Assembly (NCBI GenBank): GCA_025055235.1
Contig: JANWYN010000095.1
Coordinates: 1 to 40,806 of the forward strand
DNA from: Candidatus Roseilinea sp.
Lineage (GTDB): Bacteria; Chloroflexota; Anaerolineae; J036; Brachytrichaceae
Direction of reading: 5' to 3'
DNA length: 40,806 bases
This document shows, piece by piece, positions 8,086 to 38,271 of this stretch. Positions within the stretch are counted from its first letter, which is position 1, and each line of letters opens with the position of its first letter. The notes below the pieces were generated by a model. The model saw only the letters and a program-made list of their open reading frames with translations. It did not search any database and had not been told where the DNA came from. Both the position numbers and the translations under genes were made by a program.

Positions 8086-8287
8086 AGCGTTCGTCCGTGC
8101 GGTATGAACCGAACGCCCCCACCAAAAAAATGCACTCCTAGCGCACTCGGGAATAACAATCGCCTTCGCTTGGTTAATGGAAGTTAATCCAGTCCACATA
8201 TCTTCCAATAAAGTGCATACCTGAGCTTTAGGAATTTGATATATCTGCGACAGTATCCCCATTCCTAACCTTGTGAGGAGAAAAGAC

Positions 8288-16584: not shown

Positions 16585-16589
16585 TTTTT

Positions 16590-16688
16590 GGTCGCTGGTT
16601 GTTGGTCGCTGGTATCTAACACTCCCGATCTCCAACTCCAATCTCCAACATCAATTTTCAATTTTTCAATTCTCAATTTTCAATTCTC
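16590..16688. repeat. Heptanucleotide (STRR-like) array between the BtuF-like and oxidoreductase genes
   Basis: Phased heptamers on the plus strand: GGTCGCT, GGTTGTT, GGTCGCT, GGTATCT (16590-16617); then a CTCCAA-rich block (16627-16650); then AATTTTC, AATTTTTC (one 8-mer), AATTCTC, AATTTTC, AATTCTC (16653-16688). On the minus strand the array is the leader of the BtuF-like gene (ATG 16584) and supplies the last codons and TGA stop (16673-16675) of the oxidoreductase gene. Confidence 0.9.
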
Positions 16689-17752
16689 ACCTCCCGCCCC
16701 TCCTGCGACGAGCGGTAGATGGCGTCAATGATCTGCAGGCCGATCAAGCCGTGCTCGCCGGGCGACTCGGGCGCGGCGCCGCTCAGCACACAGTCCACGA
16801 AGTGGTGCACGGCGACGCGATGGCCGCTGACGCCGGCCGGCAAACGCGGCACGATCGCCGCCGGCTGATCGTTGATCAGTTTATACATCACCACGGTCTC
16901 GCCGTTCGGCGCACCGGTGTAGAAGTTCGCGCCGGCTTCGCTGCCGAACAGCCGCACGTAGAAGCCATCCTGCATCGGCTCGCGGTGCGACGCCCAAGCT
17001 GATTCGAACTGCAACACGGCGCCGTCGGCGAAGCGCACGAAACCGAGGCCCATGTCGTCCACGTTGAAGTTAGCCGGCTTGACGTCGCGTGGCTTGGTCT
17101 TTTGCCCGCGCGGGCCGAACTCGGCGAACGCCGCGCCGCTCACCGCGACCGGCTGTGGATAGCCCATCAGCCAAAGCGCCAGGTCGAGCACGTGCACGCC
17201 CAGGTCAATCAGCGCGCCGCCGCCGGCCCGCTCCTTCTGCGTGAACCATTGGCCATGCGTCGGAATCCATCCTTCGCGCAGCCAGCCGGCCTTCGCCGCG
17301 TAGATGTGGCCGAAGTCGCCGGCGCGGATTTGGCCCTTCAGCCAGACGATCTCCGGGCGATAGCGGTGGTTGTAACACACCATCAGCGTCTTGTTCGCCG
17401 CGCGGGCTGCCTCGATCATGCGCCGGCCGGCCTCGACCGACACGGCGAGCGGCTTTTCGCACAGCACATGCTTGCCGTGCGCAAACGCTTCCAGAGCGAC
17501 CGGCTCGTGCAGCCAGTTGGGCAAGGCGATGCTGATGGCGTCTATTTCGCTCGACTTCAGCACGTCGTGATAGTCGGTGAAGCGGCGCGACTCGGGGATG
17601 TTGAACCGCTCGCCGCGCTCCTTCAGGATGGCCGGGTTTACGTCGCAGATCGCGGCCAGTTCACAGCTCGGGTGGGTCTGGTAGCCCTCGATGTGATTCC
17701 AACCCACGCCCACGCCGATGACCGCCGCGCGGAGTTTCGATGAAGGCGTCAT
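16673..17752 (-). CDS. Gfo/Idh/MocA family NAD(P)-dependent oxidoreductase
   Basis: 359 residues. The N-terminal Rossmann domain starts with KLRAAVIGVGVGWNHIEGY. The family signature CEKPLAVS is at about 96-103, and the C-terminal alpha/beta domain holds GGGALIDLGVHVLDLALWLMG, whose Asp/His are the usual catalytic neighbours. The family oxidises sugars, inositols and related polyols. The last residues (RIEN) and the stop codon are encoded by the adjoining heptamer array, so the natural C-terminus has been edited by the repeat. The start at 17752 follows another heptamer palindrome (17779-17828). The substrate is unknown. Confidence 0.9.
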   Translation of the reverse strand: MTPSSKLRAAVIGVGVGWNHIEGYQTHPSCELAAICDVNPAILKERGERFNIPESRRFTDYHDVLKSSEIDAISIALPNWLHEPVALEAFAHGKHVLCEKPLAVSVEAGRRMIEAARAANKTLMVCYNHRYRPEIVWLKGQIRAGDFGHIYAAKAGWLREGWIPTHGQWFTQKERAGGGALIDLGVHVLDLALWLMGYPQPVAVSGAAFAEFGPRGQKTKPRDVKPANFNVDDMGLGFVRFADGAVLQFESAWASHREPMQDGFYVRLFGSEAGANFYTGAPNGETVVMYKLINDQPAAIVPRLPAGVSGHRVAVHHFVDCVLSGAAPESPGEHGLIGLQIIDAIYRSSQEGREVRIEN

Positions 17753-17778
17753 AGTGGTGTGTCCTAATGCGACCTGAG

Positions 17779-17828
17779 ACTCCCCACTCCCTACTTCCTT
17801 CGTAAGTGGGGAGTCGGGAGTGGGGAGT
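17779..17828. repeat. Heptamer palindrome between gcvPA and the oxidoreductase gene
   Basis: Left heptamers ACTCCCC, ACTCCCT, ACTTCCT (17779-17799), spacer TCGTA, right heptamers AGTGGGG, AGTCGGG, AGTGGGG plus AGT (17805-17828). The outer 13 bp (17779-17791 and 17816-17828) are perfectly complementary, so the transcript can form a strong hairpin. It lies 6 bases after the gcvPA stop and 26 bases before the oxidoreductase start, both on the minus strand, so it could end or attenuate read-through. Confidence 0.9.
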
Positions 17829-17834
17829 TGCAGC

Positions 17835-19184
<1,350 letters not shown>

Positions 19185-19188
19185 GGTG

Positions 19189-19269
19189 AATTGAAAATTG
19201 AAAATTGAAAATTGGATAAAGGAGGACTTCCTTTCTCAATTCTCAATTTTCAATTCTCAATTCCTAATT
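19189..19269. repeat. Heptamer palindrome between gcvH and gcvPA
   Basis: Left arm: AATTGAA three times and AATTGGA (19189-19216). Centre: a small hairpin AAAGGA/TCCTTT (19218-19234). Right arm: CTCAATT twice, TTCAATT, CTCAATT, CCTAATT (19235-19269). It fills the gap between the gcvH stop (TAG at 19264-19266 on the minus strand, inside the right arm) and the gcvPA ATG (19184). The last residues of GcvH (TEN) are written by the repeat. Confidence 0.92.
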
Positions 19270-19659
19270 TTCGGTTTCCTTCAACAGTTGTTCGTAGGCA
19301 GCCGCGTCGAGCAGGTTGTTGAATTCGGCGATGTCGTCGGGCCTGATGCGGATCATCCAGCCGGCCTGGTAGGGATCCTGGTTGATCGTCTCCGGCTTGC
19401 TCTCGAGTTGGGTGTTCACGGCAGTGATTGTGCCGCTGACCGGCATATAAACGTCGGATGCGGCTTTGACCGACTCCACCACGCCGAACGCTTCGCCGGC
19501 TTTATACGTTGCGCCGACGCGCGGCAGTTCCACGTAGACCAGATCGTTCATCGCAGCCTGCGCGTGGTCGCTGATGCCGCACACAATCTCATCACCTTCA
19601 ATGCGCGCCCATTCGTGGGTTTTCAAATAGCGCGCGGATGGGTCAATTTTGGATGCCAT
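19264..19659 (-). CDS. gcvH: Glycine cleavage system H protein
   Basis: 131 residues from the ATG at 19659, a normal size; upstream in-frame codons lack family similarity. It is a lipoyl-carrying shuttle protein of the glycine cleavage complex. The lipoylation site is Lys65 in GVVESVKAASDVYMP, preceded by THEWARIEGDEIVCGISDHA (residues 14-33). AGAGAG lies about 10 bases before the start as a weak ribosome site. gcvPA follows on the same strand after a heptamer palindrome; gcvT and gcvPB are not in the window. The 207 bases up to the divergent polysaccharide gene must hold promoters for both directions, but none is clear. Confidence 0.96.
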   Translation of the reverse strand: MASKIDPSARYLKTHEWARIEGDEIVCGISDHAQAAMNDLVYVELPRVGATYKAGEAFGVVESVKAASDVYMPVSGTITAVNTQLESKPETINQDPYQAGWMIRIRPDDIAEFNNLLDAAAYEQLLKETEN

Positions 19660-19866
19660 GTCGTTTCTCTCTGTGAGTTCGAGGTCGTTCTGTGGGTTGG
19701 CGCCGCGATGCATAGGCTCGCGTGTTATGCTCTTCCCGCGCGAATGATACCAAAGCGATCCGGGTATGTTAGAGTTTCGCTCCTTGGGCGAGGTTCACAG
19801 CGTCCTAATCCGGCGAGGGTAGGATAGGGCGTCTGTGACTTCCCGTCAGTTCTGAGGTGGCATCAC

Positions 19867-22800
19867 ATGTCGAGTGTGGTTGCAACGGCGCAAGCCAGCA
19901 GCGTAGCGCCTGACGTCGAGCGTGGCGCGACGACTGCGCCGGTCGCCTTCGCCAGCCGCCTGAGCGTCTGGTGCAACCGGCTGATCGAAGCCGGCTGGCT
20001 GGCGGCGATCATCGTTGTGCCGTTGTTCTTCAACATCTACTCCAGCCGGGTGTTCGAACCCGACAAGCTGACCACCCTGCGCTCGATCGCCCTGGTCATG
20101 GCCATGGCCTGGGTCGTGAAGTGGCTCGAAGAGTTCCGCAACCCGAACCGCGACCGCAGCGTGACCTGGCGCACACCGCTCGTGTTGCCCACGCTGATCA
20201 TCATCGTCGTCTACATGATCAGCACCGCGCTTTCGATCGCGCCGCGCACCAGCTTGCTCGGGTCATACCAGCGCCTGCAGGGCACCTACACCACGTTCGC
20301 CTACATCGTGGTTTTCTTGATGATCCTGCAAGGGATGCGCCGGCGCGCGCAACTGGATCGGCTGATCACGCTTATCATCATCATCTCGCTGCCGGTCGCG
20401 ATCTACGGCCTCTTGCAGCGCCTGCAGCTCGACCCGCTGCCGTGGGGCGGCGACACGGTGGAGCGCGTGGCCGGCAACATGGGCAACTCGATCTTCATCG
20501 CCGCCTACCTGGTGATGGCATTCTTCATCACCTTCTACCGCATCGCCGACAGCTTCGCGTCCATTCTGCAGAACGAACAGCCGCGCTGGTCGGACGTGGT
20601 GCGCGCGGCGTGCTACATCCTGGTCGCGCTGTTCAACGCCATCGTCGTGCTGATCCTGGCGGGCAGCCGCGGGCCGCAGCTCGGCTGGCTGGGCGGCGTG
20701 CTGTTCGTGGCCTTGCTGCTGGTGCAACTCGTTCGCCGCCGTCAGACCCGGCTCCGGCTCACCATCGGGCTGATCGGCCTCGGCATCGCCGGATTAGCTT
20801 TCCTATATTTCATCAACGTCACGCGCAATGATCCGAGCTACGAATGGCTGCGCCAGTTCCCGCTCTTCCGTCGTCTGGGCACTGTGCTGACGACGCAAGA
20901 GGGCACCAACGCCGTGCGCGTGTTGATCTGGGAAGGTGCGGCCAACCTGGTCGCGCCACACGACCCGATCACCCGGCCGGACGGCACGCCGGATGCTTTC
21001 AACGCCATCCGGCCGCTCATCGGCTATGGGCCGGAATCCATGTACGTCGCCTACAACCGCTTCTACCCGCCGGCGCTGGCGAACTTCGAGGCGCGCAATG
21101 CCTCGCCCGACCGCAGCCACAACGAGACGTGGGATGCGTTGGTCATCACCGGCGTCTTCGGCCTGCTCGCCTACATGTTCCTGTTCGGCAGCGTGCTCTA
21201 CTACGGCTTTCGCTGGATTGGGCTGATCGCGTCGCGATTCGAGGCGCAACTGTTCGTCGTGATGTGGATCGCCGGCGCGGCGCTGTTCGGCCTGGGCGCG
21301 GTCGTCGCCGGCCACCGGGAGCTGTTCGGCATCGCCATAGGTGCCGGTGTGGTGTTCGGCCTGACCGTCTTCTTGTTCGTCAGCGCCATCATCAACGCGC
21401 GCCGCGGTGACGACGAAGCGCTGCCCGTCCAGCTTTCGCTGCGCGATCAGTTGTTGCTTATCGCCATCGTCTCCACCATCATCGCGCACTTCGTCGAGAT
21501 TCACACCGGCATCGCCGTCGCGGCGACGCGGACGTACTTCTGGACGCTGATCGGCGTGATGGTCGTGGTCGGCGCCGGCCTGCTTCGGAGCGACATGCCG
21601 GAGGTGATGGACGGAAAGTCGGAAGCCGAAGCCGGCGCGGTGAAACCTGCAGCGTCCACGAGCGCCGGTTTGGGGGATGGTCGCCAGGCTGCGGGCGGCA
21701 CGCGGCGACAACGCCGCGCTGCGCAACAACGCGCGGCCGCAGCGCGGCGCACGGCGGCGCCGGCTAGACGAGGCTTCATACTGCCGAGCTGGTTCGGCAC
21801 CGTGGCAGCCTATGGGCTGTTCCTGGGCCTGATCCTCGGCATCATGGCCTTCGATTTCACCAACAACATCGAACGCAGCACGGCTGCCGGCCAGGTCTTC
21901 ATCAACGCGATGACCCGCGTGAAGGGACAACCGAGCTTCGGCGTGCTGACCATGTTCCTCATCACGCTCATCGTTGGCCTTGCCGTCATCTTGGCCGAGC
22001 TGCGATCGGGCGGCGTGCTGCGCGACAATGAGCACACGGTCGCCGCCGGCGCGCTCATCGCCTCGTTGGCCATGTTCGTGTGGGTGGCGTTCGGCACGTT
22101 CATCGCCGGCCGGCTGGTGGCGTTCTTCACCTCGCCGCAAAACTCGGTCAGCGGCGTGCTCAGCATCGCCGATCAATTGGCCGCCTTCCCGGCCTACGTG
22201 TATCTGCTGATCGCCGCAGTGATGATCGGCAGCGCCTTCTTGCTGCGCAGCGAAGAGCCGACCTTGCCCGCGAAGGGTGCGTCCTATGCCGGCTTGACCG
22301 GGCTGTTCGTCGGCGCGATCGCCGTGCCCATCGCCGTCGCCTACAGCAACCTGCAGCCGATCGCCGCCGACATCGTTTACAAGCAAGCCAGCCCGTGGGA
22401 TCAAGACGGGTCACGCGAGTTGGTGCAAGGCACCGGCATCCAAGGCTGGGACTTGGCCATCGAGCATTATCGCCGTTCGATCCAGCTCGCGCCGAACGAG
22501 GACTTCTACTATTTGTGGCTGGGGCGTGCGTTGTTGGAAAAGGCGAAGACCACGCCGAACCCATCGCAAGCCAAGACCATCCCCGAAGACGCGCCGTTCA
22601 CGCACATCATCGGGGATGAGCCGGAGAACTGGAATCGCCCGTATGGCTCCGATGCGTTGCCCTCCGCCAGCCTGAGCCGCCAGGACCTGCTCACGGCAGC
22701 GCGCATCATCTTGGAGGAAGCGCGCGTCATCAACCCGTTCAACACCGACCACAGCGCGAACCTAGCCCGCATGTGGCAGCAGTCGGGTGATATCGTCCGG

Positions 22801-23436
22801 GCGGAATTGGATATGGAGCGCGCGCGGCCCAACCCAGACCCCGCGCGGATCGCCGAACTGGTGGCTGATGCGCAGCGGCGCTACGAAAACGCCTCGAAGG
22901 AATATGCGACGGCCACGCGCCTGAGCCCGAACAATGCGCAGTTGTGGAACGAGTGGGCCAGCCTGTATCTCTCCCGGCTGGGCAGCCTGGAGGAAGCCAA
23001 GGTCCGGCTCGACCGCTCACTCGCGCTCGACAAGAAATTCAGCCAGACGTATCTGCTGCGCGCCGCATGGCATGTGGAGAAAGCGCGCACGCTCGACCGG
23101 CAGACGAACCAGGCCGAATGGCGCGCCGAACTGGAGCGCGCGCGTGAGGAACTCAACCAGGCCGTGGCCGTTGATCCTAATTCGCTCCAAGCCTACCAGG
23201 AGCTGGCGCGCATCGCGTTGGATTTGGGCGACACGCAGGCTGCGATCAACGCGTTGCAGGCCATGCTGGTGCGCAACCCGAACGACTGGAACACGCTCAA
23301 GAACCTGGCCGTGCTCTACAGCGACACGCGCCAGATCACGCTGGCAGTCGAATATGCCCGGCGCGCGCTCGAACGGGCGCCGGCCGATCAGCAGCTCATG
23401 CTCAGTTCGTTCATTCAGCAACTCGGCTCACCCTGA
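19867..23436 (+). CDS. O-antigen ligase/polymerase (Wzy_C) membrane protein with C-terminal TPR domain
   Basis: 1189 residues. About a dozen membrane segments fill residues 35-580, with the O-antigen ligase core: AGSRGPQLGW near 264-273, and RSHNETWDALVITGVFGLLAYM with probable catalytic His418. A basic, Ala-rich cytosolic linker (about 595-635) follows, then a second membrane block (640-830). TPR-like helices start near 860 (IEHYRRSIQLAPNEDFYYLWLGRALLEKA) and go to the end. Such proteins polymerise or ligate surface polysaccharide repeat units outside the membrane. GAGGTG at 19854-19859 is the ribosome site. It is the first gene of an exopolysaccharide locus. Whether it is polymerase or ligase cannot be decided by sequence alone. 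Confidence 0.85.
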   Translation: MSSVVATAQASSVAPDVERGATTAPVAFASRLSVWCNRLIEAGWLAAIIVVPLFFNIYSSRVFEPDKLTTLRSIALVMAMAWVVKWLEEFRNPNRDRSVTWRTPLVLPTLIIIVVYMISTALSIAPRTSLLGSYQRLQGTYTTFAYIVVFLMILQGMRRRAQLDRLITLIIIISLPVAIYGLLQRLQLDPLPWGGDTVERVAGNMGNSIFIAAYLVMAFFITFYRIADSFASILQNEQPRWSDVVRAACYILVALFNAIVVLILAGSRGPQLGWLGGVLFVALLLVQLVRRRQTRLRLTIGLIGLGIAGLAFLYFINVTRNDPSYEWLRQFPLFRRLGTVLTTQEGTNAVRVLIWEGAANLVAPHDPITRPDGTPDAFNAIRPLIGYGPESMYVAYNRFYPPALANFEARNASPDRSHNETWDALVITGVFGLLAYMFLFGSVLYYGFRWIGLIASRFEAQLFVVMWIAGAALFGLGAVVAGHRELFGIAIGAGVVFGLTVFLFVSAIINARRGDDEALPVQLSLRDQLLLIAIVSTIIAHFVEIHTGIAVAATRTYFWTLIGVMVVVGAGLLRSDMPEVMDGKSEAEAGAVKPAASTSAGLGDGRQAAGGTRRQRRAAQQRAAAARRTAAPARRGFILPSWFGTVAAYGLFLGLILGIMAFDFTNNIERSTAAGQVFINAMTRVKGQPSFGVLTMFLITLIVGLAVILAELRSGGVLRDNEHTVAAGALIASLAMFVWVAFGTFIAGRLVAFFTSPQNSVSGVLSIADQLAAFPAYVYLLIAAVMIGSAFLLRSEEPTLPAKGASYAGLTGLFVGAIAVPIAVAYSNLQPIAADIVYKQASPWDQDGSRELVQGTGIQGWDLAIEHYRRSIQLAPNEDFYYLWLGRALLEKAKTTPNPSQAKTIPEDAPFTHIIGDEPENWNRPYGSDALPSASLSRQDLLTAARIILEEARVINPFNTDHSANLARMWQQSGDIVRAELDMERARPNPDPARIAELVADAQRRYENASKEYATATRLSPNNAQLWNEWASLYLSRLGSLEEAKVRLDRSLALDKKFSQTYLLRAAWHVEKARTLDRQTNQAEWRAELERAREELNQAVAVDPNSLQAYQELARIALDLGDTQAAINALQAMLVRNPNDWNTLKNLAVLYSDTRQITLAVEYARRALERAPADQQLMLSSFIQQLGSP

Positions 23437-23443
23437 GCAACCG

Positions 23444-23485
23444 GCTCAAAGCTCACAGCCCATAGCTCACAGCTCACAGCTCACA
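23444..23485. repeat. Heptamer array forming the leader of the WecA-like gene
   Basis: Six phased heptamers: GCTCAAA, GCTCACA, GCCCATA, GCTCACA, GCTCACA, GCTCACA, ending three bases before the ATG at 23489. It replaces the place where a Shine-Dalgarno would be, starts 7 bases after the upstream stop, and has no inverted right arm. Confidence 0.92.
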
Positions 23486-23488
23486 AAC

Positions 23489-25869: not shown

Positions 25870-25942
25870 GATCGCGCAGCTGGTTGTGTGCGCGATCCAG
25901 CGTGCGCTCCCATCGGCCGGGTGCGACTAATAACGACGACGG

Positions 25943-27055
25943 ATGAACGCCGAGCTGCCGTATTACCTGGCTTTCGCGCGCGTCAAGGGCATCGGCGCTG
26001 TGCGTGTTCGGAAGCTGAAAGCACACTTCGGCTCGTTGCAGCTCGCGTGGTCTGCCGGTGAGTTCGACCTGACCGCAGCCGGCCTGGACGCGAGGACGAT
26101 CGGAGCGCTGGCCCAGGCGCGCCGGAGTATCGTCCCGGAGCAAGAGGTCGAACGCTTAGCAAACGTCGGCGCGACGGCATTCACGTGGGAAGACGCCGGC
26201 TATCCTAAATTGCTGCGGGAAGTGGCCGATCCGCCGCCGGTGTTATTCGTGAAGGGTGCGCTGGCCGAAGCAGACGCGTGGGCGGTGAGCATCGTCGGCA
26301 CGCGCCGCGCGACGGTGTATGGCCGAGAGGTAGCGGAGATGTTAGCCGGTGAGCTGGCGCGTAACAACATCACCATCGTCAGCGGCATGGCCCGTGGGAT
26401 TGATGCCGTCGCTCACCAGGCGGCACTGAAGGCCGGCGGCCGCACCTTGGCCGTGCTGGGCTGCGGCGTAGACGTGGTATATCCGCCCGAACATCGCAAG
26501 TTGGCGCAACAGATCGCTGAGAACGGCGCGCTGGTCAGCGACTATCCGATCGGCACGCCGCCGGACGCGGCGAATTTCCCGCCGCGCAACCGCATCATCA
26601 GCGGGCTCAGCTTGGGCGTGGTGGTGGTTGAAGCCGATGAGCACAGCGGCGCGCTGATCACCGCCGAGTTCGCTGCTGAACAGGGCCGCGATGTGTTTGC
26701 CGTGCCGGGGAACATCTTCAACCGCACCAGCCGCGGCACCAACCGGCTCATTCAGCAAGGCGCGCACATCGTGCTCGATGTGCAGAGCGTCTTGGAGGAG
26801 TTGAACCTCAACATGGTGGCGGATCGTGTGGAGGTCGAAGCCGCGGTGCCGGAGAACGATACCGAGCGAGAGATCCTGGCGCGTCTCTCGCACGAGCCGA
26901 CGCAGGTGGACGAGCTGGTGCGCGCGCTTGCGATGCCTGCTGCCGACGTCACGGCGACGCTGGCGCTGATGGAGCTAAAAGGGCTGGTGCGCCAGGCGAC
27001 CGGCACGAGCTACGTCCTGGCGCGCGAAGCGCGTGTGGCGTATCGGGTGGATTGA
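25943..27055 (+). CDS. dprA: DNA processing protein DprA
   Basis: 370 residues, the usual length. A helix-hairpin-helix start (LAFARVKGIGAVRVRKLKAHFG) leads to the extended Rossmann fold that binds single-stranded DNA and RecA (VSIVGTRRATVYGREVAEML, VSGMARGIDAVAHQAAL, LGCGVDVVYPPEH, FPPRNRIISGLS, GALITAEFAAEQGRDVFAVP). A C-terminal winged-helix domain (about 300-370) follows. DprA loads RecA onto incoming DNA in natural transformation. It sits inside the exopolysaccharide locus, in the same direction, which is unusual and suggests insertion or simple co-location. No Shine-Dalgarno is seen before the ATG. Confidence 0.96.
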   Translation: MNAELPYYLAFARVKGIGAVRVRKLKAHFGSLQLAWSAGEFDLTAAGLDARTIGALAQARRSIVPEQEVERLANVGATAFTWEDAGYPKLLREVADPPPVLFVKGALAEADAWAVSIVGTRRATVYGREVAEMLAGELARNNITIVSGMARGIDAVAHQAALKAGGRTLAVLGCGVDVVYPPEHRKLAQQIAENGALVSDYPIGTPPDAANFPPRNRIISGLSLGVVVVEADEHSGALITAEFAAEQGRDVFAVPGNIFNRTSRGTNRLIQQGAHIVLDVQSVLEELNLNMVADRVEVEAAVPENDTEREILARLSHEPTQVDELVRALAMPAADVTATLALMELKGLVRQATGTSYVLAREARVAYRVD

Positions 27056-27056
27056 A

Positions 27057-27105
27057 GGTCAGGGGCCAGGGATCAGGGGTCGGGGGTCAGGGGCCAGGGG
27101 TCAGG
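27057..27105. repeat. Heptamer array (GGTCAGG type) after dprA
   Basis: Seven phased heptamers without a break: GGTCAGG, GGCCAGG, GATCAGG, GGTCGGG, GGTCAGG, GGCCAGG, GGTCAGG. It starts one base after the dprA stop codon. Confidence 0.95.
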
Positions 27106-27115
27106 TCAATCACCG

Positions 27116-27185
27116 GTTACCAGTTACCAATTACCAATCATCAATCATCAATCATCAATCATCAATCATTACTCACCACTCATCG
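27116..27185. repeat. Heptamer array (ATCATCA type) leading into manC
   Basis: Ten phased heptamers: GTTACCA twice, ATTACCA, ATCATCA four times, ATCATTA, CTCACCA, CTCATCG, ending five bases before the manC ATG. The unit drifts stepwise along the array. It is separate from the GGTCAGG array by 10 bases. It is open in the manC frame, so a longer N-terminus is possible but is repeat-encoded. Confidence 0.95.
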
Positions 27186-27189
27186 AGAC

Positions 27190-28263: not shown

Positions 28264-28267
28264 ACGC

Positions 28268-28948: not shown

Positions 28949-28964
28949 AGGTTGCTCGCGAAAG

Positions 28965-29615: not shown

Positions 29616-29621
29616 TCTACC

Positions 29622-30248: not shown

Positions 30249-30274
30249 AATTACGATCACGCGTCGGGTATAAT
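30246..30274 (+). promoter_or_regulatory. Sigma-70-type promoter before the unknown gene pair
   Basis: A perfect -10 TATAAT at 30269-30274 with TGAAAT at 30246-30251, 17 bases apart. Transcription would start near 30281, only about 8 bases before the GTG at 30289, so the mRNA leader would be very short. It begins at the end of the kinase-like gene and separates the polysaccharide locus from the next genes. Confidence 0.6.
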
Positions 30275-30288
30275 CTTCATGCTAACTC

Positions 30289-31872: not shown

Positions 31873-31883
31873 TGTGACTGGCT

Positions 31884-32315
31884 GTGAGCCTACGAACGAT
31901 GAAGCTGCTGAGACCGACCGAGAACACGCCCTTTCACATTGACTACTCCTGGTTCGAGAAGAACGGCCAGGATGTAAACGTGCTGATTTACAAATGCTTG
32001 ACGCCGGAACAGCAGGAACGGCTGGCCGGCGTGCCGGTGGACGAGGCGCTCGACTTCGTGGACGAGGACACCGGCGAGGTGAAGCGTGTGACGCGCGCGA
32101 TGCAGATGCTCCGCACCGAGCGCGCCGACGATCCGACGTTCATCAGCCCGCGTTTGCCCCTGGCCGAGTCCGTCTTCCGCGTCTTCTTGCTCAACGACAA
32201 CCAGCCGCTGACGCCGGTCGAATTGGCAGCGCGCATCGGGCGCAAGCCGTCCGAGATCCTCGCCCAGCTTGGCGGCCGCGCTGTTTATAATGGCATCCGG
32301 CCGATTATGAACTAG
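31884..32315 (+). CDS. Small conserved protein of unknown function, partner of the preceding gene
   Basis: 143 residues from GTG 31884, or 138 from ATG 31899 (MKLLRPTENTPFHIDYSWFE), which may be the better start. An N-terminal part (FHIDYSWFEKNGQDVNVLIY, LTPEQQERL) leads to an acidic middle (DFVDEDTGEVKR) and a C-terminal helix-turn-helix-like stretch (PLTPVELAARIGRKPSEILAQLGG). It is probably co-transcribed with the 527-residue gene. Its TAG stop shares one base with the first base of the tRNA gene, so maturation of the tRNA would cut the mRNA at the stop codon. Confidence 0.65.
   Translation: MSLRTMKLLRPTENTPFHIDYSWFEKNGQDVNVLIYKCLTPEQQERLAGVPVDEALDFVDEDTGEVKRVTRAMQMLRTERADDPTFISPRLPLAESVFRVFLLNDNQPLTPVELAARIGRKPSEILAQLGGRAVYNGIRPIMN
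32286..32291 (+). promoter_or_regulatory. -10 box (TATAAT) for the tRNA inside the preceding gene
   Basis: A perfect TATAAT lies within the last codons of the unknown gene, 23 bases upstream of the mature tRNA 5' end. The -35 region is not recognisable at 16-18 bases. It may provide tRNA transcription independent of the protein genes. Confidence 0.45.
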
Positions 32316-32388
32316 CCCCCGTAGCTCAACAGGATAGAGCAGGGCACTTCTAATGCCGAGGTTGTGAGTTCGAGTCTCGCCGGGGGCG
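32315..32388 (+). tRNA. tRNA-Arg(TCT)
   Basis: A full cloverleaf of 74 bases. Acceptor stem GCCCCCG (32315-32321) pairs with CGGGGGC (32381-32387), discriminator G32388. D stem GCTC/GAGC. Anticodon loop CTTCTAA (32347-32353) with anticodon TCT at 32349-32351. T arm GTGAG-TTCGAGT-CTCGC (32364-32380). The first anticodon-stem pair (27-43) is G opposite G, a mismatch. CCA is not encoded. It decodes AGA, a rare codon in high-GC genomes. Its first base is also the last base of the upstream gene's stop codon. Confidence 0.96.
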
Positions 32389-32490
32389 TTCCTCACCATC
32401 AACCTCTCCGAAGGTATAGCTGGTTCTCTGTGGTGAACGAGCTTAAAGTTGGGTTGGCTACGCCACAGCACGGCCCGACTGCGTAAGCGC

Positions 32491-34341
32491 ATGTTTCGAC
32501 CCGTCCGAGAACCGCCTCAGAAGAGTTTTCGCCTGCCGGAGATTCGTTCCGCTGCGTCGAACGTCGTCAAGGCGTTCGGGTTGATCTGGCAGGCGCATCC
32601 GCCCAGCACGCTCGGCATGGCCGGCGTGACGTTGTTGCGCGCGGGCCTGCCGGCGGCGCAGGCCTGGGCCGGCAAGCTCATCGTAGACGGTGTGGTAGAA
32701 GCCATCGGGCGCGTCCCGTCCGCCGACTTTTGGACGGCGTTGCAGCCGGTGTTGCCGTTTTTGGTCTTGGAGTTCATCCTGGTGACCGCCAGCGCGGTCT
32801 TGAATCAAATGCGCAGCTTGTTCGAGCACGTACTGCATGCGCACCTATCGCACACCATCAACACCGCCATCATCCGCAAGTCGCTCACGCTGGACTTGTA
32901 TTTCTTCGAAAACGCAGAGTACTATGACAAGTTGGAGAACGCCCGGCGCGAGGCTGACCACCGGGCGCTGAGCATTCTGAACGATGGCTTCTCGCTCGTG
33001 CAAAACGCGATCACCCTGGCATCATTCGTCGCGCTGCTGCTCGCCTTCAGCCCGCTGCTGGCGCTGCTGCTGTTGGGCGCGACGCTCCCGCTCTTCATCG
33101 CGCAGACGCGCTTCAGCGAATTACGCTTCCGGCTGCTCACCTGGCGCGCGCCCGAGGCGCGGCGCATGATGTATCTGGAACGCTTGCTCACCGATAGCGA
33201 GAGCGCCAAAGAGGTCAAGCTATTCGGCCTGGGTGAGCCTTTGCTCAGGCGCTACCACGATCTGTTCTGGAAGTTCTACACCGAGGATACCGCGCTGGCC
33301 AAGCGGCGCAGCGCGATCAGCGTCGGCTTCGGTGTGCTCACCAGCCTGTCTTACTACGCAGCCTATGCGTGGATCGTCTTTCGCACCGTCACCGGCGCCA
33401 TCACCCTGGGGAGCATGACGCTCTACCTGACGGTCTTCCGCCAGAGCCAGAGCACATTTCAGGGCATGCTGCAAAGCATGAACGCGCTCTACGAGAGCGC
33501 GTTGTTCATGAGCAACCTATACGGCTTCCTCAGCCTGCAACCGCAGATGAAAGCGTCGAACGCGCCGTTGAAGGTGCCGCGCCCGATCGTTCGCGGCATC
33601 GAGTTCCGCAACGTGTCCTTCAAGTATCCGGGCCGGTCTGAGTGGGCGCTGCGCAACGTCTCGGTGACCATCGCTCCCGGCGAGAAGCTGGCGCTGGTTG
33701 GGGCGAACGGCGCCGGCAAAACTACCTTCATCAAGCTGCTCACGCGGCTCTACGACCCGACCGAGGGCCAAATCTTGCTCGACGGCGTGGACCTGCGCGA
33801 GTACGACATTGACGATTTGCGCTTGCGCATCGGCGTGATCTTCCAGGACTTCGTGCGCTACATGATGACCGCCGGCGAGAACATTGGCTTCGGGCAAATC
33901 GAGGCGCTGGACGACCGGCCGCGCATCGAGCGCGCGGCGCAGAAGGGTGGGGCAGACGAGGTGATCGCTACGCTGCCGCAGGGTTACGACACGATGCTCG
34001 GCGCGTGGTTCGAGCGCGGGCGCGAACTCAGCGGAGGCCAGTGGCAAAAGATCGCGCTGGGCCGCGCCTTCATGCGCGACGCCGAGGTGCTCGTGCTCGA
34101 CGAGCCGACCTCGGCGCTCGACGCCGAACGCGAGTATGAGATCTTCCAGCGCTTTCGCCGGCTCACCGAAGGCCGCATCGCCATCCTGATTAGCCATCGC
34201 TTCAGCACGGTGCGCATGGCCGACCGCATCGCCGTGTTGGAGAACGGCGAGCTGATCGAGCTGGGCACGCATCGCGAACTGTTGGAGAAAGACGGCGTGT
34301 ATGCCCGGCTGTTCAACATGCAGGCCGAGGGGTATCGGTAG
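32491..34341 (+). CDS. ABC exporter: fused membrane and ATPase domains
   Basis: 616 residues from the ATG at 32491 (an in-frame TTG at 32449 is less likely). The N-terminal membrane part (about 30-335) has six probable segments with the exporter coupling region YLERLLTDSESAKEVKLFGLGEPLL. The ATPase part has Walker A GANGAGKT (404-411), signature LSGGQ (513-517), Walker B VLVLDEP with catalytic Glu538, and a switch His in ILISHRFST. It would work as a homodimer or heterodimer exporting a lipid, peptide or drug. It stands alone, 102 bases after the tRNA; the substrate is unknown. No Shine-Dalgarno is clear. Confidence 0.9.
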   Translation: MFRPVREPPQKSFRLPEIRSAASNVVKAFGLIWQAHPPSTLGMAGVTLLRAGLPAAQAWAGKLIVDGVVEAIGRVPSADFWTALQPVLPFLVLEFILVTASAVLNQMRSLFEHVLHAHLSHTINTAIIRKSLTLDLYFFENAEYYDKLENARREADHRALSILNDGFSLVQNAITLASFVALLLAFSPLLALLLLGATLPLFIAQTRFSELRFRLLTWRAPEARRMMYLERLLTDSESAKEVKLFGLGEPLLRRYHDLFWKFYTEDTALAKRRSAISVGFGVLTSLSYYAAYAWIVFRTVTGAITLGSMTLYLTVFRQSQSTFQGMLQSMNALYESALFMSNLYGFLSLQPQMKASNAPLKVPRPIVRGIEFRNVSFKYPGRSEWALRNVSVTIAPGEKLALVGANGAGKTTFIKLLTRLYDPTEGQILLDGVDLREYDIDDLRLRIGVIFQDFVRYMMTAGENIGFGQIEALDDRPRIERAAQKGGADEVIATLPQGYDTMLGAWFERGRELSGGQWQKIALGRAFMRDAEVLVLDEPTSALDAEREYEIFQRFRRLTEGRIAILISHRFSTVRMADRIAVLENGELIELGTHRELLEKDGVYARLFNMQAEGYR

Positions 34342-34551
34342 TGGAAGACCCTTGGGCGAGCGCCGTCGAATTCGCTGGCGATCACCGGCTGGGCATCTGG
34401 CATATCTCCCCTCCTGTTAATTGATTCACTCGAAATGCATGACCGAGAGGGCAGAATGGCGGCTGCGGCGGAGGGCAACGAACAGCGGCATGATAACACC
34501 TCCGAGAGGCGCTTAGGTGACCCAATCGCAACAACTTCGTGTCAAATTAAC

Positions 34552-34557
34552 TATAAT
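34552..34557 (+). promoter_or_regulatory. -10 box close to the acetyltransferase start (possible leaderless mRNA)
   Basis: TATAAT lies 8 bases before the ATG at 34566. With the usual 6-8 base distance, transcription would start on or next to the A of ATG. No Shine-Dalgarno is present, in line with leaderless translation. No good -35 was found. The rest of the 224-base gap after the ABC exporter holds nothing I can identify. Confidence 0.5.
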
Positions 34558-34565
34558 CCGGCGTC

Positions 34566-35165
34566 ATGGTCATGGACGTCCAGCCGGTCACGCTCAGCGG
34601 ACAATGGGCGAGGCTGGAGCCGCTGCGCGTAGAACATGCCGAAGCGTTGTGGCCGCAGGCCGATGAGCCTGAAATCTGGCGTTACATGCCTTACGGTGAG
34701 GTGGATTCGCTGGACAAGCTGCGCGCTGTTATTGAAGACTTGCTGGGGCGCCAGGCGCGCGGAACCGATTTGTGCTTTGCGGTGTTTGATCATGCGACGG
34801 GTGCAGCAGCCGGCATGACGCGCTACATGACCATTGACCGGCCTAACCGCAGCCTGGAGATCGGCGGCACCTGGTATGGCAAGGCTTACCGTCGCACGGC
34901 GATGAATACGGAGTGCAAATACCTGCTGATGAGACACGCCTTCGAGGTATTGGGGTGCATTCGCGTGCAGCTCAAGACCGACCTGCGCAACGAGCGCAGC
35001 CAACGCGCCATCGAGCGGTTAGGCGCCGTGCGCGAGGGCGTGCTGCGCAAGCATATGATCATGCCGGATGGCTACCATCGTTCGTCGGTGATCTACAGCG
35101 TGATTGACGACGAGTGGCCGGCCATCAAAGCGCGCCTCGAACGATTGCTGCGCGCGCAAGCGTAG
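34566..35165 (+). CDS. GNAT N-acetyltransferase (RimJ/RimL type)
   Basis: 199 residues. The order of elements is that of the RimJ/RimL branch: LSGQWARLEPLRVEHAEALWP, FAVFDHATGAAAGMTRYMTI, LEIGGTWYGKAYRRTAMNTE (the acetyl-CoA loop region, about 98-117), then VLGCIRVQLKTDLRNERSQR and AIERLGAVREGVLRKHMIMP. The family transfers acetyl groups from acetyl-CoA to protein N-termini or small amines. The start could also be Met3. It has its own -10 box and stop-codon hairpin, so it appears monocistronic. The substrate is unknown. Confidence 0.88.
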   Translation: MVMDVQPVTLSGQWARLEPLRVEHAEALWPQADEPEIWRYMPYGEVDSLDKLRAVIEDLLGRQARGTDLCFAVFDHATGAAAGMTRYMTIDRPNRSLEIGGTWYGKAYRRTAMNTECKYLLMRHAFEVLGCIRVQLKTDLRNERSQRAIERLGAVREGVLRKHMIMPDGYHRSSVIYSVIDDEWPAIKARLERLLRAQA

Positions 35166-35178
35166 GTTCGCTTGCGCG
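35153..35178 (+). terminator. Hairpin across the acetyltransferase stop codon
   Basis: CGCGCAAGCG (35153-35162) pairs exactly with CGCTTGCGCG (35169-35178) around a 6-base loop that contains the TAG stop. There is no T run after it, so it may be a non-canonical terminator or an mRNA 3'-end stabiliser. Confidence 0.5.
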
Positions 35179-35182
35179 AATG

Positions 35183-35303
35183 CCTCACAAAGTCTCCATC
35201 CCTGCTGTGGCCTGTGAGGGAACTCGTCAGTGGCCTAAACCGCTTTAGGAATTCAGATGGTCGAAATCAACTGAGAAACTCGTTCTCAGAAATCAAAGGA
35301 GAG
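35183..35303 (+). promoter_or_regulatory. Leader of the phosphofructokinase gene with three stem-loops and a strong ribosome site
   Basis: Three inverted repeats in series: CCTCACA (35183-35189) with TGTGAGG (35213-35219); CCTAAA with TTTAGG (35234-35249, 4-base loop); CTGAGAA with TTCTCAG (35271-35289, 5-base loop). The last ends six bases before the ribosome site AAAGGAGAG (35295-35303). The spacing to the chosen ATG at 35309 is better than to the out-of-frame ATG at 35304. The first stem could alternatively belong to termination of the upstream gene. Confidence 0.5.
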
Positions 35304-35308
35304 ATGTT

Positions 35309-36469
35309 ATGCGAATCGGAATTTTGACAGGCGGCGGCGATGTGCCCGGGCTGAACTCAGCGATCAAGGCAGCCACCCTGCGACTGCTCGATGCCGGCCA
35401 CGAGATGATCGGCATCCGGCGCGGCTGGTATGGCTTGCTGCATTTCAACATGGACGACGAGACCAGCGCGCAGCAGTTTACGATGCGGCTCGACCGTAAT
35501 GCCGTGCGCACGGTAGATCGCACAGGCGGCACCTTCCTGCACACCAGCCGCACCAACCCGGCCAACGTGAAAGCAAAAGAGGTGCCGGAGTTCCTCAAAC
35601 ACACCACGGTGTTTGCCAGCGGCCTGGCCGACCGCTACGACTTCACGCAACACGTGCTGAGCGTGCTGCGCTTTCTAGGCATAGATGCCCTCATCACCAT
35701 CGGCGGCGACGACACGCTAAGCTACTCGCTGCGATTGCACAACGAGGGCTTCCCGATCGTCGCTATTCCTAAGACGATGGACAACGACGTGCGCGGCACG
35801 GATTACTGCATCGGCTTTAGCACGGCCGTCACTCGCGCGCTCGACTTCATCCACAACATGCGCACCTGCACCGGCAGCCACGAGCGCATTGCCGTGATCG
35901 AGCTATTCGGGCGCTATAGCGGCGAGACCGCGCTCATGTCCTCCTACCTGGGCAACGTAGATCGCTGCCTGATTGCCGAGGTGCCGTTCGACATCGAGAA
36001 ACTGTGCGACTATCTGCTCCAGGATAAGCGCGCCAATCCAAGCAACTATGCGATGTTGGTGGTTTCGGAGGGTGCGCGGCCGATGAACGGCAGCATGATC
36101 GAGCGCGGTGAGGCGGATGCCTATGGGCATCGCAAGCTGGGCGGCATCGGCGATTACATCAGCGAGCAGATCAAGCGCTTGACCGGCGAACACACCATGT
36201 ATCAAAACGTGGCCTATCTCATGCGTTCCGGCGCGCCAGATGCGCTGGATGTGATGGTCTCCAGCAACTTCGGTGCGTTCGCGGCCGATTTGATCCTGCA
36301 GGGGCGCTGTGGCCGGATGGTAGCGTTGCAGGGTGGCAAGTACACCAGCGTGCCGCTCACCGAGGTGGGCGGTGGGCCGCGCCCGCTCGACGTCGCCGAA
36401 CTCTACGATGCCGAACACTACCGGCCGCGCGTGCGCAACATCGAGAACAAGCCGATGTTCTTGTATTAG
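35309..36469 (+). CDS. pfkA: Phosphofructokinase with pyrophosphate-type active-site signature
   Basis: 386 residues. Opening [16 protein letters not shown] (5-20), then GGDDT (132-136), PKTMDND (154-160) with catalytic Asp158, and later RYSGETAL and LGGIGDYI. In ATP enzymes the position after GGD is Gly and the one before TIDND is Gly. Here they are Asp135 and Lys155, the pair known to mark pyrophosphate-dependent phosphofructokinase. The enzyme would phosphorylate fructose-6-phosphate reversibly using PPi. The assignment follows from these two residues; kinetics are untested. It has the clearest Shine-Dalgarno in the window. Its TAG stop is part of a heptamer array. Confidence 0.93.
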
Positions 36470-36544
36470 AGATTAGAGATTGGAGATTGCGCCGTGGACT
36501 GATCCCAATCCCTAATCTCCAATCTCTAACCAACTCCAATCTCT
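36468..36544. repeat. Heptamer palindrome filling the gap between convergent pfkA and the mutase gene
   Basis: Left: AGAGATT twice, GGAGATT (36468-36488). Spacer of 18 bases. Right: AATCCCT, AATCTCC, AATCTCT (36507-36527), a 10-base irregular unit, AATCTCT (36538-36544). The pfkA TAG (36467-36469) and the mutase TGA (minus strand, 36544-36546) are both partly made of array bases. The arms can pair, so it may serve as a two-way transcription stop. Confidence 0.92.
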
Positions 36545-38271
36545 CAAATCACCGTCGGCGGGTGATACTCGCCGAAGACGCGACGCAGCGCCTTGCCGAT
36601 CTCGCCGACGGTGACGCCGCCCTCCACGCAGGCGATCAGGCACGGCATGATGTTCTCGCTGCTGCGCGCCGTCTGCTCGAGCTGGGCGATAAGCGCGCTG
36701 ACCCGCGCGTTGTCGCGGTTGGCGCGCCATTCTGCCAGCCGCCGGCGCTGCTCGGCCTCGATCGCCGGATCCACTTTGAATCGCTCCCCGGCTCCCACCC
36801 CCTGGTCCTTGTCCTCGAACGCGTTGACGCCGACGATGATGCGCTCTTTGCTCTCCACCTGCCGCTGGTAGCGGTAGGCCGACTCGGCAATCTGCGCCTG
36901 CATCCAGCCGCTCTCGATGGCCTTGATTGCGCCGCCCATTGCGTCAATCTTCTCGATCAACTCCCGTGCGCGGCGCTCGATCTCGTCGGTGAGGTATTCG
37001 ATGACGTACGCGCCGCCGAGCGGATCCACCGTGTCGGTCACGCCGCTTTCGTAGGCGATGATCTGCTGGGTGCGCAGCGCGGTGCGGGCAGCCTCGGCGG
37101 TGGGCAGTTGCAGCGCCTCGTCCCAACTGTTGGTGTGCAGGCTTTGCGTGCCGCCGAGCACCGCGGCCAGCGCTTGAATGGTCACGCGGGCAACGTTGTT
37201 GATGGGTTGCTGTGCAGTCAAGGTGCTGCCGCCGGTCTGGGCGTGGAAGCGCAGCATGCAACTGCGCGGGTCTTTGGCGCCGAAGCGCTCGCGCATGATC
37301 TTCGCCCACAGCCGGCGCGCCGCGCGGAACTTGGCGATCTCCTCCAGGAAGTCGTTGTGCGCATTGAAGAAGAAGGCGAGCTGGCCGGCGAACTCGTCCA
37401 CGTCCAGCCCGACGTCTATCGCCGCTTGCACGTAGGCGATGGCGTTGGCCAGCGTGAAGGCCACTTCCTGCACGGCAGTGCTGCCGGCCTCGCGGATGTG
37501 ATAGCCGCTGATGCTGATCGTGTTCCAATGAGGCACATACTGCTTGCAGAACGCGAACACGTCCGTCACCAGCCGCATCGAGTGCTTCGGCGGGAAGATG
37601 TATAGCCCGCGCGCGGCGTATTCTTTGAGGATGTCGTTTTGAACCGTCCCTCTCAGGGAATTGAGAATTGAAAATTGGGAATTGAGAATTGAGTCCTGTT
37701 TCTCAATTCTCAATTCTTCATTCTCAATTTTTGCCTGTTCGCGCGCCACCGCGATATACAGCGCCAGCAGCACCGCCGCCGGTGCGTTGATGGTCATGCT
37801 GGTGCTGACTTTGTCGAGGGGGATGCCGTCGAACAGCTCGCGCATGTCGCCCAGTGTGCAAATGCTCACGCCGACCTTGCCCACCTCACCGGCGGCCAGC
37901 GGGTCGTCAGCGTCCATGCACAGTTGAGTCGGCAGGTCGAAGGCGACCGAGAGGCCGGTCTGGCCCTGCGACAGCAGGTAGCGGTAGCGCGCGTTGCTCT
38001 CCTTTGCCGTGGAGAAGCCGGCATACTGTCGCATCGTCCAGTGGCGTGAGCGATACATGGTTGGGTGGATGCCGCGCGTGAACGGGTATTCGCCGGGGAA
38101 CTCGCCGTGGCATCCTGCGCCGGTGGTCGGGTCGCCATAGACGACGTCGAGCGGAATGCCGGAAGGCGTCTCGAAGCGCGCCTTGCGCTCCGGCGCGCGC
38201 TTGAGCGAAGGGTGTAGCGTCTCGCGCTCCCAGTCGGCGTGGGTGCGATGGGCATGGGCAGTTTCGATCAT
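36544..38271 (-). CDS. Methylmalonyl-CoA mutase, catalytic (substrate-binding) chain
   Basis: 575 residues from the ATG at 38271; it comprises only the TIM-barrel domain, so the B12-binding chain must be encoded elsewhere. It interconverts methylmalonyl-CoA and succinyl-CoA with adenosylcobalamin. Conserved blocks are [18 protein letters not shown] (79-96, Tyr83), [28 protein letters not shown] with Arg233, and [13 protein letters not shown] with His258. Arg at 233 is the methylmalonyl-type residue; isobutyryl-CoA mutases have Gln there. Residues about 180-205 are an insertion of some 20 residues encoded by a heptamer array, in the loop where relatives read EEQGV...[10 protein letters not shown]. 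The C-terminal stop is also supplied by an array. Convergent with pfkA. Confidence 0.94.
37659..37729. repeat. Heptamer palindrome inserted in frame inside the mutase gene
   Basis: Left: AATTGAG, AATTGAA, AATTGGG, AATTGAG, AATTGAG (37659-37693). Spacer TCCTGTTT (37694-37701). Right: CTCAATT, CTCAATT, CTTCATT, CTCAATT (37702-37729). It has the same design and nearly the same units as the intergenic palindrome at 19189-19269. It encodes the repetitive mutase segment with [12 protein letters not shown] on the minus strand without a stop. Confidence 0.95.

What the first reader, a model, noticed from the sequence alone, without database searches (positions are those of the whole stretch)
16590..37729. 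A family of phased heptanucleotide arrays on gene borders, STRR-like, in a non-cyanobacterial genome
At least eight arrays lie between 16.6 and 37.7 kb (16590, 17779, 19189, 23444, 27057, 27116, 36468, 37659). Units differ between sites (GGTCAGG, ATCATCA, AATTGAG, AGAGATT, AGTGGGG, GCTCACA), but the unit length of seven is kept almost without exception, and five of them have arms in both orientations. What is conserved is period and architecture, not sequence, which is unusual for a mobile repeat. Cyanobacterial STRR repeats have this property; I do not know them from Chloroflexota, if that is what this is. A slippage-based or templated mechanism that counts seven would be new.
Basis: partly seen in the sequence, partly recalled or inferred. 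Interest (0 to 1): 0.9.

Follow-up and report, generated by a model that had tools for sequence, protein, structure and literature searches.

The report
Two-armed heptamer arrays in Roseilinea
Short DNA repeats exactly seven letters long, often in mirror-image pairs, sit at gene borders and even inside conserved enzyme genes of a Chloroflexota genus; they are a known but unexplained kind of bacterial repeat, here seen growing, fading, sometimes changing letters and spreading between genes.

Summary
The listed arrays exist, and seven is the genome's period: 49 of 78 tandem arrays in 638 kb, none of period 2-6, none in a Markov control. The host is a Candidatus Roseilinea-type Chloroflexota. Units differ between sites; at one site, relatives usually share the unit: of 15 comparable pairs with arrays on both sides, 12 share one and 3 have a clearly different heptamer. 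Relatives without a detectable array keep a faint period-7 trace at those borders; matched control borders do not, so the sites are long-lived. Beyond the finding: a 20-mer with a rare variant unit recurs at 26 loci in five species; 13 of 25 read are in-frame inserts, mostly two-armed, in conserved proteins (MM-CoA mutase in the window, TrpB, CarB, GltB, GcvT, AccC and others), so arrays also spread between loci. Heptamer excess, inverted pairs and a polymerase-slippage idea for seven are already in print. New to me: many unit families in one genome, the period trace at array-free orthologs, in-frame inserts within conserved folds. Mechanism inferred: 7-nt slippage plus copying between arms and loci; nothing found explains why seven.

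The parts
16588..16689 (.). Mixed heptamer block between the 15607-16545 (-) and 16673-17752 (-) genes (its end overlaps the latter's 3-prime end): TTGGTCG-type units, then CTCCAAT and TCAATTT/TCAATTC units
   Evidence: TRF rows; G005 has a 173 bp continuous register through several units, G001 has GAGATTG plus ACTCTGG units, no array seen in G002/G003/G004/G008; no hairpin excess
17779..17830 (.). Two-armed GGGGAGT array (CTCCCCACTCC / GGAGTGGGGAG) between gcvPA and a GFO/IDH/MocA oxidoreductase gene
   Evidence: hairpin -48.8 kcal/mol, z -6.2; by eye, inverted inserts of other sequence in G001, G003, G005, G006, G007, none in G002, G004, G008
19189..19272 (.). Two-armed AATTGAA/AATTGAG array filling the gcvH-gcvPA border
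   Evidence: z -5.7; filled in G000, G003, G005; three bases between the genes in G001, G006, G007, G008
23444..23485 (+). GCTCACA array between the 19876-23436 and 23489-24586 genes, running up to the downstream start codon
   Evidence: same unit in G005, shorter, degenerate or absent in the other relatives read
27057..27105 (+). GGTCAGG array directly after the dprA-like stop codon
   Evidence: Pfam DNA_processg_A for 25943-27055
27112..27184 (+). Array that changes unit in register, GTTACCA to ATTACCA to ATCATCA, before a mannose-1-P guanylyltransferase-like gene
   Evidence: G005 has a related mix, G004 almost nothing
36465..36545 (.). Two-armed GAGATTA/GAGATTG array between convergent phosphofructokinase and MM-CoA mutase stop codons; the first unit contains the TAG stop
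   Evidence: z -5.7; present in G005 and G006, one arm in G001
37656..37729 (.). Two-armed AATTGAG array inside the MM-CoA mutase gene, in frame, encoding [25 protein letters not shown]
   Evidence: gap in the alignment to 4r3u; G005 has GGGGTAA units, G001/G006/G007/G008 a short unrelated linker
36544..38271 (-). Methylmalonyl-CoA mutase large-subunit gene that carries the in-frame array
   Evidence: Pfam MM_CoA_mutase 5e-218 over residues 34-567
17835..19184 (-). gcvPA, the gene used to find relatives and compare both of its borders
   Evidence: Pfam GDC-P

Best explanation
These are heptanucleotide simple-sequence arrays, mostly neutral or selfish, living at long-lived sites in gene borders and protein loops. 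Shown: the period is seven; more than a third of arrays in G000 have an inverted partner arm of the same unit; units resemble their neighbours most; at one site relatives have a shared unit, now and then another heptamer, or only a faint period-7 trace; one rare variant unit is shared by unrelated loci. Inferred: (1) copy number changes by slippage or misaligned repair in 7-nt steps, and point mutations are copied into neighbouring units, so a unit drifts while the register stays; (2) a hairpin between arms lets one arm be recopied from the other; (3) arrays seed or convert one another across the genome, so a few units dominate each species; (4) selection only removes what breaks genes, so copies survive at borders and, in open frame, in protein loops. 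Whether the faint traces are decayed arrays or seeds of coming ones is not settled. Why seven rather than six or eight is not explained by anything found here; the published guess is the polymerase contact length.
For: Period spectrum. Lag test: arrays detected at lag 14 (with a weak filter on lag 7, at least .45) have identity .834 at lag 7.804 at 21.790 at 28.753 at 35.725 at 42.683 at 49, about .2-.25 off register (51 arrays); arrays detected at lag 21 (37) give .857 at 7.853 at 14.830 at 28.771 at 49. Inverted arm within 90 bp in 24 of 64 arrays of G000 against 2.9% with units swapped. Period trace: 63 array-free gaps at array sites have lag-7 identity .335 against .264 at lags 4-6 and 8-10; 162 control gaps .257 against .263; G005 has arrays at 10 of 21 array sites and 1 of 44 control sites. 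Unit shared at one site in 12 of 15 pairs, clearly replaced in 3. 29 unit classes among 64 arrays where about 61 are expected, 25 of 29 with a one-step neighbour (43% in random sets). A 20-mer with the variant unit AATGAAG: 31 matches, 26 loci, 5 of 9 genomes. Divergent borders hold 2 of 45 oriented intergenic arrays against 27% of intergenic bases.
Against: No strains close enough to watch single 7-nt steps were available. In trpB and at C48:107491 an array lies where array-free relatives have nearly the same length, so part of the origin looks like replacement and not growth. Sharing of AATGAAG between loci is not predicted by purely local slippage. 84 of 100 ortholog pairs have no detectable array. 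In G005 the inverted-arm excess vanishes at strict thresholds (6 of 25 at 11, 1 of 25 at 15, control 3%). The z of the trace test treats bases as independent; G004 (5 gaps) and G008 (4 gaps) do not show it clearly.
Confidence: 0.58

Rival explanations
1. A non-autonomous mobile element (MITE-, REP- or RPE-like) with heptamer arms, moved by a transposase in trans; slippage is secondary decoration.
For: In-frame inserts with near-identical arms in 11 kinds of unrelated genes; near-exact filled and empty states at gcvH-gcvPA; Y1 transposase hits are most numerous in the three genomes richest in AATTGAR arrays (G000 2, G003 3, G005 4; others 0-1).
Against: No fixed consensus across unit families and no clear target-site duplication; spacers between arms differ; only 8 of 1540 pairs of masked flanks match each other, at least three of these through second array arms; 2 of 8 fetched Y1 neighbourhoods (8 of 12 Y1 matches, 47 kb in all) hold a period-7 array, where the G000 density would give four to five.
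Confidence: 0.22
2. Selected RNA or DNA hairpins (terminators, mRNA stabilisers, regulator sites) whose sequence is free but whose fold is kept.
For: Four window sites fold far better than shuffles (z -5.7 to -6.2); the 17779 border has, by eye, an inverted insert of changing sequence in six genomes.
Against: Array-free orthologs fold no better than other intergenic DNA (mean z -0.89, n 51, against -0.97, n 84); some close relatives lack the insert altogether; 40 of 64 arrays had no inverted arm at the threshold used; 18 of 64 lie in called genes.
Confidence: 0.12
3. Independent local birth at every site with convergence on favoured heptamers, without any exchange between loci.
For: Look-alike seeds in array-free relatives at some sites (CATCAGTC near C48:100513, TCAGTTCCC in trpB of G007, by eye); related unit classes.
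Against: Between AATTGA units, the two-step variant AATGAAG (4 cases) outnumbers each one-step variant except AATTGAA in the sampled stretches; a 20-mer with it recurs at 26 loci, coding and non-coding, so stop avoidance explains only part.
Confidence: 0.07
4. Assembly or binning artefact.
For: Draft genome in 151 contigs.
Against: Same arrays at the same borders in G003, G005 and G006, G005 being one contig; reading frames kept through in-gene arrays.
Confidence: 0.01

Closest known systems
Heptanucleotide simple sequence repeats of prokaryotes (long SSRs of Mrazek 2007; 7n3 of PMC4060949)
   Same: Unit of seven, excess in Chloroflexi in a 2014 table, slippage proposal
   Different: Those surveys count classes; the period trace at array-free orthologs and in-frame copies in conserved enzymes were not in the parts I read
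GGGAATC / GGGGA(C/T)T repeats of Xanthomonas and Nostoc (PMC4692102)
   Same: Heptamers near gene ends, few between divergent genes, inverted pairs in Xanthomonas, same gene contexts with length and sequence variation between two species
   Different: One G-rich quadruplex-forming unit type there; here 29 unit classes in 16% of one genome, 26 of them without a run of three G or C
TAACTGA repeats of Beggiatoaceae, cyanobacteria and Bacteroidetes (PMC4679880)
   Same: Heptamers, mostly intergenic in the Guaymas genome, 7-nt indels between two Cyanothece strains, some copies in reading frames
   Different: One dominant unit, mostly forward before start codons in that genome; in-gene copies mostly at protein ends
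Cyanobacterial STRR
   Same: Tandem heptamers dispersed in a genome
   Different: The three unit classes of a 200 kb Trichormus plasmid sample (AATTCGC, AATGACT, AGGGGGC) are not among the 29 classes of G000, though AATGACT is one step from AATGACC
Rickettsia palindromic elements (RPE)
   Same: Palindromic inserts, in frame, in unrelated genes, shared peptide (passages of PMC10969869)
   Different: RPEs are about 150 bp; here roughly 50-85 bp and built of heptamer arrays; no sequence comparison with RPEs was made

Membership tests
Heptanucleotide long simple sequence repeats | Unit length seven in excess over other unit lengths | tested here: met
   49 of 78 arrays in G000, 19 of 26 in G005
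Heptanucleotide long simple sequence repeats | More tandem copies than chance gives | tested here: met
   0 in order-2 Markov controls
Heptanucleotide long simple sequence repeats | Length change by whole units | tested here: inconclusive
   Single examples read by eye: 7 bases in the right arm of 19189 (G000 against G005), 21 bases in trpB (G001 against G000); no close strains
Cyanobacterial STRR | Same unit sequences as the described STRR sets | not tested
   STRR units are known to me from recall only; a Trichormus plasmid sample shares no class with G000
Cyanobacterial STRR | Dispersed tandem heptamers, mainly intergenic | tested here: met
   46 of 64 intergenic by my gene caller
Cyanobacterial STRR | Cyanobacterial host | tested here: not met
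   Host nearest Candidatus Roseilinea, Chloroflexota
GGGNATC quadruplex repeats | A run of three or more G in each unit | tested here: not met
   3 of 29 classes have a run of three G or C
Rickettsia palindromic elements | Palindromic insert in frame in unrelated genes with a shared peptide | tested here: met
   13 of 25 loci read, 11 kinds of gene, RIENEELR...SILNSQFSI in most; the FGE-type gene has one AATTGAG arm only
Rickettsia palindromic elements | Sequence homology to RPE families | not tested
   No RPE sequence was compared
MITE / REP element | Fixed consensus with terminal inverted repeats | tested here: not met
   29 unit classes, inverted arms in 24 of 64, spacers differ
MITE / REP element | Target-site duplication | tested here: inconclusive
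   gcvH-gcvPA filled and empty sites allow at most a base or two
MITE / REP element | Cognate transposase | tested here: inconclusive
   Y1 counts follow AATTGAR-array counts in 9 genomes but arrays are not enriched near the 8 Y1 genes looked at

The most novel reading that the evidence does not exclude
A class of dispersing palindromic element whose inherited features are a period of seven and two-fold symmetry, not a sequence: it enters gene borders and, in open frame, the loops of conserved enzymes, can be rewritten in place into new heptamers by a copying process that measures seven nucleotides, and leaves a period trace when it fades. Similar two-armed heptamer arrays in Prevotella MAGs and Xanthomonas would make it a cross-phylum phenomenon. 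(Probability lowered from 0.20: rewriting is clear in 3 of 15 pairs, not 7.)
Probability: 0.16. Interest if true: 0.87.

Novelty: new variant of a known kind. Interest (0 to 1): 0.6.

Why it matters
The heptamer peak in bacterial simple repeats has been reported since 2007 (as cited in PMC4679880 and PMC4692102) with, in what I read, one untested guess about its cause. This genus gives a usable system: nine species, array-rich and array-poor, with the same sites filled, changed, faint or empty. It also shows that such repeats enter conserved enzymes in frame, so they can supply new loops to proteins, outside Rickettsia.

Tried and rejected
First count of unit turnover: by best-scoring unit alone, 7 of 15 pairs looked different; one search showed that in 4 of these 7 the relative's unit also recurs in the G000 site, so only 3 are kept (C48:47591 against G001, C48:104495 against G005, window 37656 against G005). 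Mirror symmetry of variant units across arms: looked at by eye in three palindromes, partly mirrored after a one-unit shift, not tested, not used. Mismatch repair loss: MutL found in 9 of 9 genomes. Loss of SbcCD: SbcD not found in G000 (91.6% complete) but found in the array-rich G003 and G005, so rejected. Y1 transposase partner: counts agree, neighbourhoods do not. RRYY core: present in 23 of 29 classes against 12.8 expected, but classes are related, so not used. Conserved hairpin: rejected as general rule. Fixed orientation to genes: 34 purine-rich against 27 pyrimidine-rich sense units at tandem borders of G000 and G005, no bias. Lag decay with arrays detected at lag 7 is biased by detection; replaced by lags 14 and 21, which still carry a weak lag-7 filter. 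General intergenic period trace outside array sites: at the stricter cut z is -2.3 in G000, 1.3 in G005, 3.3 in G007, below 2 in G001, G002, G004, G006, G008, -0.3 in E. coli. AATTGAR arrays across the phylum: 5 of 301 genomes drawn, so this unit is local to few lineages.

Papers. PMC4679880: abstract and sections 3, 10, 15, 23. PMC4692102: abstract, sections 3 and 16, passages. PMC4060949: passages and part 1 of section 9. PMC10969869 and PMC8446752: passages. PMC9879509: abstract and outline. Mrazek 2007: not held, known through the first two. STRR details and RPE biology beyond one search are recalled. That I found no paper describing these arrays in Roseilinea rests on ten searches of one open-licence library, of which I saw capped listings.


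Full report
What is there. TRF finds period-7 arrays at the listed places; for 17779 it calls only the 17805-17828 arm and the other arm is read by eye. Exact lag-7 runs of ten or more matches occur at five places in the window, and at none of the lags 1, 2, 4, 5, 6 or 8; lag 3 has one. The host's nearest named relatives by GcvPA are Candidatus Roseilinea sp. NK_OTU-006 and Anaerolineae/Thermoflexales MAGs, five loci at 87-93% identity, so it is Chloroflexota. The genome (G000) has 3.99 Mb in 151 contigs, and eight further genomes of the genus are held.

Is seven special? In 638,479 bp of G000, 49 of 78 tandem arrays have primitive period 7; there are none of period 2-6, two of 8, four of 9; an order-2 Markov copy has none. 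The same holds in the samples of G005 (19 of 26), G001 (8 of 11), G006 (4 of 7) and G007 (4 of 4); the G002 and G004 samples (83 and 117 kb) have no array of any period at that threshold. The peak is not confined to this genus: in 69 loci of other bacteria, many of them Prevotella, 15 of 45 arrays have period 7, in 10 of the 69 loci, and at three places in two Prevotella loci they are two-armed by eye (L093, L106 twice).

Where are they? With a simple codon-usage gene caller of my own, 46 of 64 period-7 arrays (score 12 or more) in G000 are intergenic, where uncalled DNA is 17%; 32 of the 46 lie within 20 bases of, or overlap, a called gene end. Of 45 with two neighbours, 37 are between tandem, 6 convergent and 2 divergent genes, while divergent borders hold 27% of intergenic bases. 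18 of 64 lie inside called genes. The caller misses genes (66% of the window covered), but 38 of the 46 have called genes within 150 bp on both sides. An inverted arm of the same unit lies within 90 bp of 24 of 64 arrays, against 2.9% with swapped units; in G005 6 of 25 against 4.4%, falling to 1 of 25 at the strictest cut. Of seven window loci, four fold into strong hairpins, one moderately, two no better than shuffles.

How do units relate? Of 64 arrays, 29 unit classes are seen where random units give about 61, and 25 of 29 have another class one substitution away (about 43% in random sets). Within arrays, similarity falls with distance: with arrays picked at lag 14 (and a weak lag-7 filter), identity is .834 at lag 7.804 at 21.790 at 28.753 at 35.725 at 42 and .683 at 49; picked at lag 21 the fall is slower.857 at 7.853 at 14.830 at 28.771 at 49. 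At the ortholog of 16590, G005 has 173 bp in one register running from AATTGAG through AATTCAG and others to CAACCAG. This is what neighbour-to-neighbour duplication with point mutation predicts.

What happens to one site over time? For 29 array sites of G000, 100 orthologous gaps were found; 84 have no detectable array, 16 do. By best unit alone 8 of 15 classifiable pairs agree; asking whether the relative's unit recurs anywhere in the G000 site, 12 of 15 agree and 3 are clearly different: C48:104495 has GAGCTGT in G000 and GAGATTA in G005; C48:47591 has AATCATC in G000 and AATCTCC in G001 beside a shared AAGACGC-like block; the mutB array has AATTGAG in G000 and GGGGTAA in G005. So units are usually inherited and sometimes replaced. 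The array-free orthologs are not blank. After removal of anything scoring 8 or more, 63 gaps keep lag-7 identity .335 against .264 at lags 4-6 and 8-10, with echoes at 14 (.316) and 21 (.316). Matched control gaps, orthologs of array-free borders, show .257 against .263 (162 gaps). G007 (.378), G005 (.368), G006 (.325) and G001 (.316) carry it; G008 (4 gaps) and G004 (5 gaps) do not clearly. G005 has arrays at 10 of 21 array sites and at 1 of 44 control sites. The trace may be decay or seed; either way the sites look older than the species. The z values treat bases as independent and are too large, but the contrast with the matched control does not rest on them.

Gain and loss. At gcvH-gcvPA the array is present in G000, G003 and G005, and three bases separate the genes in G001, G006, G007 and G008; G004 and G002 have short unrelated spacers. 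On a midpoint-rooted tree of trpB and gcvPA, G003 and G002 lie outside the other seven (100/100), and G004 groups with G001, G006, G007 and G008 (82/97). The right arms of G000 and G003 are identical over about 30 bases including a variant unit, so an old array lost cleanly in one clade is the simplest reading. Two forks of that tree are open.

Inside genes. The window array at 37656-37729 lies in frame in methylmalonyl-CoA mutase; aligned to 4r3u, the query has an extra stretch at that point. The arm AATTGAGAATGAAGAATTGAG with the rare unit AATGAAG sits in frame in other genes of G000. A genus search for a 20-mer with that unit gave 31 matches in 5 of 9 genomes, which are 26 separate loci; 25 were fetched and read. 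In 13 of the 25 the array is an in-frame insert in a gene with recognisable sequence on both sides, of 11 kinds: trpB (two species), gltB (two species), carB, mutB, prmC-like, magnesium-chelatase-like, gcvT, accC, a GT4 glycosyltransferase, a DUF2298 membrane protein and an FGE-type enzyme. Most are two-armed; the FGE copy has one AATTGAG arm and the G001 trpB copy a second arm of about one unit. In 7 of the 11 kinds the insert lies within one Pfam match, in 3 between matched domains, and in the magnesium-chelatase-like one ahead of the matched part. The usual peptide is [11 protein letters not shown], a variable spacer, then SILNSQFSI. In TrpB of G005, 29 residues stand where 5ey5 has one; of seven genomes whose loop was printed, G000, G001 and G005 have heptamer units, G006, G007 and G008 an unrelated linker about as long as that of G001, and G004 a shorter one; G002 and G003 were not printed. 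The other 12 loci lie at gene starts or ends or were not resolved. Stop avoidance could favour AATGAAG in frames, but it also occurs in non-coding loci, so copying between loci is the better reading.

Mechanism. Growth by 7-nt slippage, in-place mutation, recopying of arms through hairpins, and exchange between loci together explain the data; only the patterns are shown, the steps are inferred. MutL is found in all nine genomes and SbcD in eight, not in G000. Y1 transposase hits are most frequent in array-rich genomes, but 2 of 8 neighbourhoods looked at hold an array, no enrichment. Array-free orthologs fold no better than other intergenic DNA, which speaks against a general function of the fold. 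Why seven remains open; the published proposal is polymerase contact length.

What is known. Heptamer excess in Chloroflexi is in Table 2 of PMC4060949. Inverted pairs, tandem-border preference and variation at kept sites are described for one G-rich unit in Xanthomonas; 7-nt indels between two Cyanothece strains for TAACTGA. In-frame palindromes in unrelated genes are known as RPEs in Rickettsia. The combination seen here I did not find in ten searches of one open library, seen as capped listings.

Noticed in passing
L093:5296-5379; L106:6784-6922; L106:7938-8011: Two-armed heptamer arrays (AATGAGT / AATTACT; AAATGAG / AAGTGAG) in Prevotella MAGs of the control set, the same architecture in Bacteroidota.
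   Followed up: partly
G000 C1:17220-20702: The carB gene carries three separate in-frame heptamer arrays (18569, 19276, 20161) and encodes 1161 residues.
   Followed up: partly
L237 (G005 C1:3624001-3632000): A Y1-type transposase gene is flanked by several copies of a roughly 54-base repeat spaced about 180 bases apart (coordinates), RAYT-like by recall; no heptamer array in the stretch.
   Followed up: no
G005 orthologs of G000 C48:72487 and C48:100513: Other hairpin repeats (ACACGAAGG-type and CGCGGAGGCACGGAGG-type) sit where G000 has heptamer arrays, as if these borders accept several kinds of hairpin.
   Followed up: no
window 18572-18636: An 18-nt tandem (GGTCAGGTCGGTCGAGTT) inside gcvPA, not a heptamer.
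   Followed up: no
G000, whole genome search: SbcD (TIGR00619) not found in G000 but found in the other eight genomes; may be assembly incompleteness.
   Followed up: partly
window 622-8491: My codon-usage gene caller found no gene here although long ORFs exist (3963-5735, 5742-7895); either the caller fails or the stretch has foreign codon usage.
   Followed up: no
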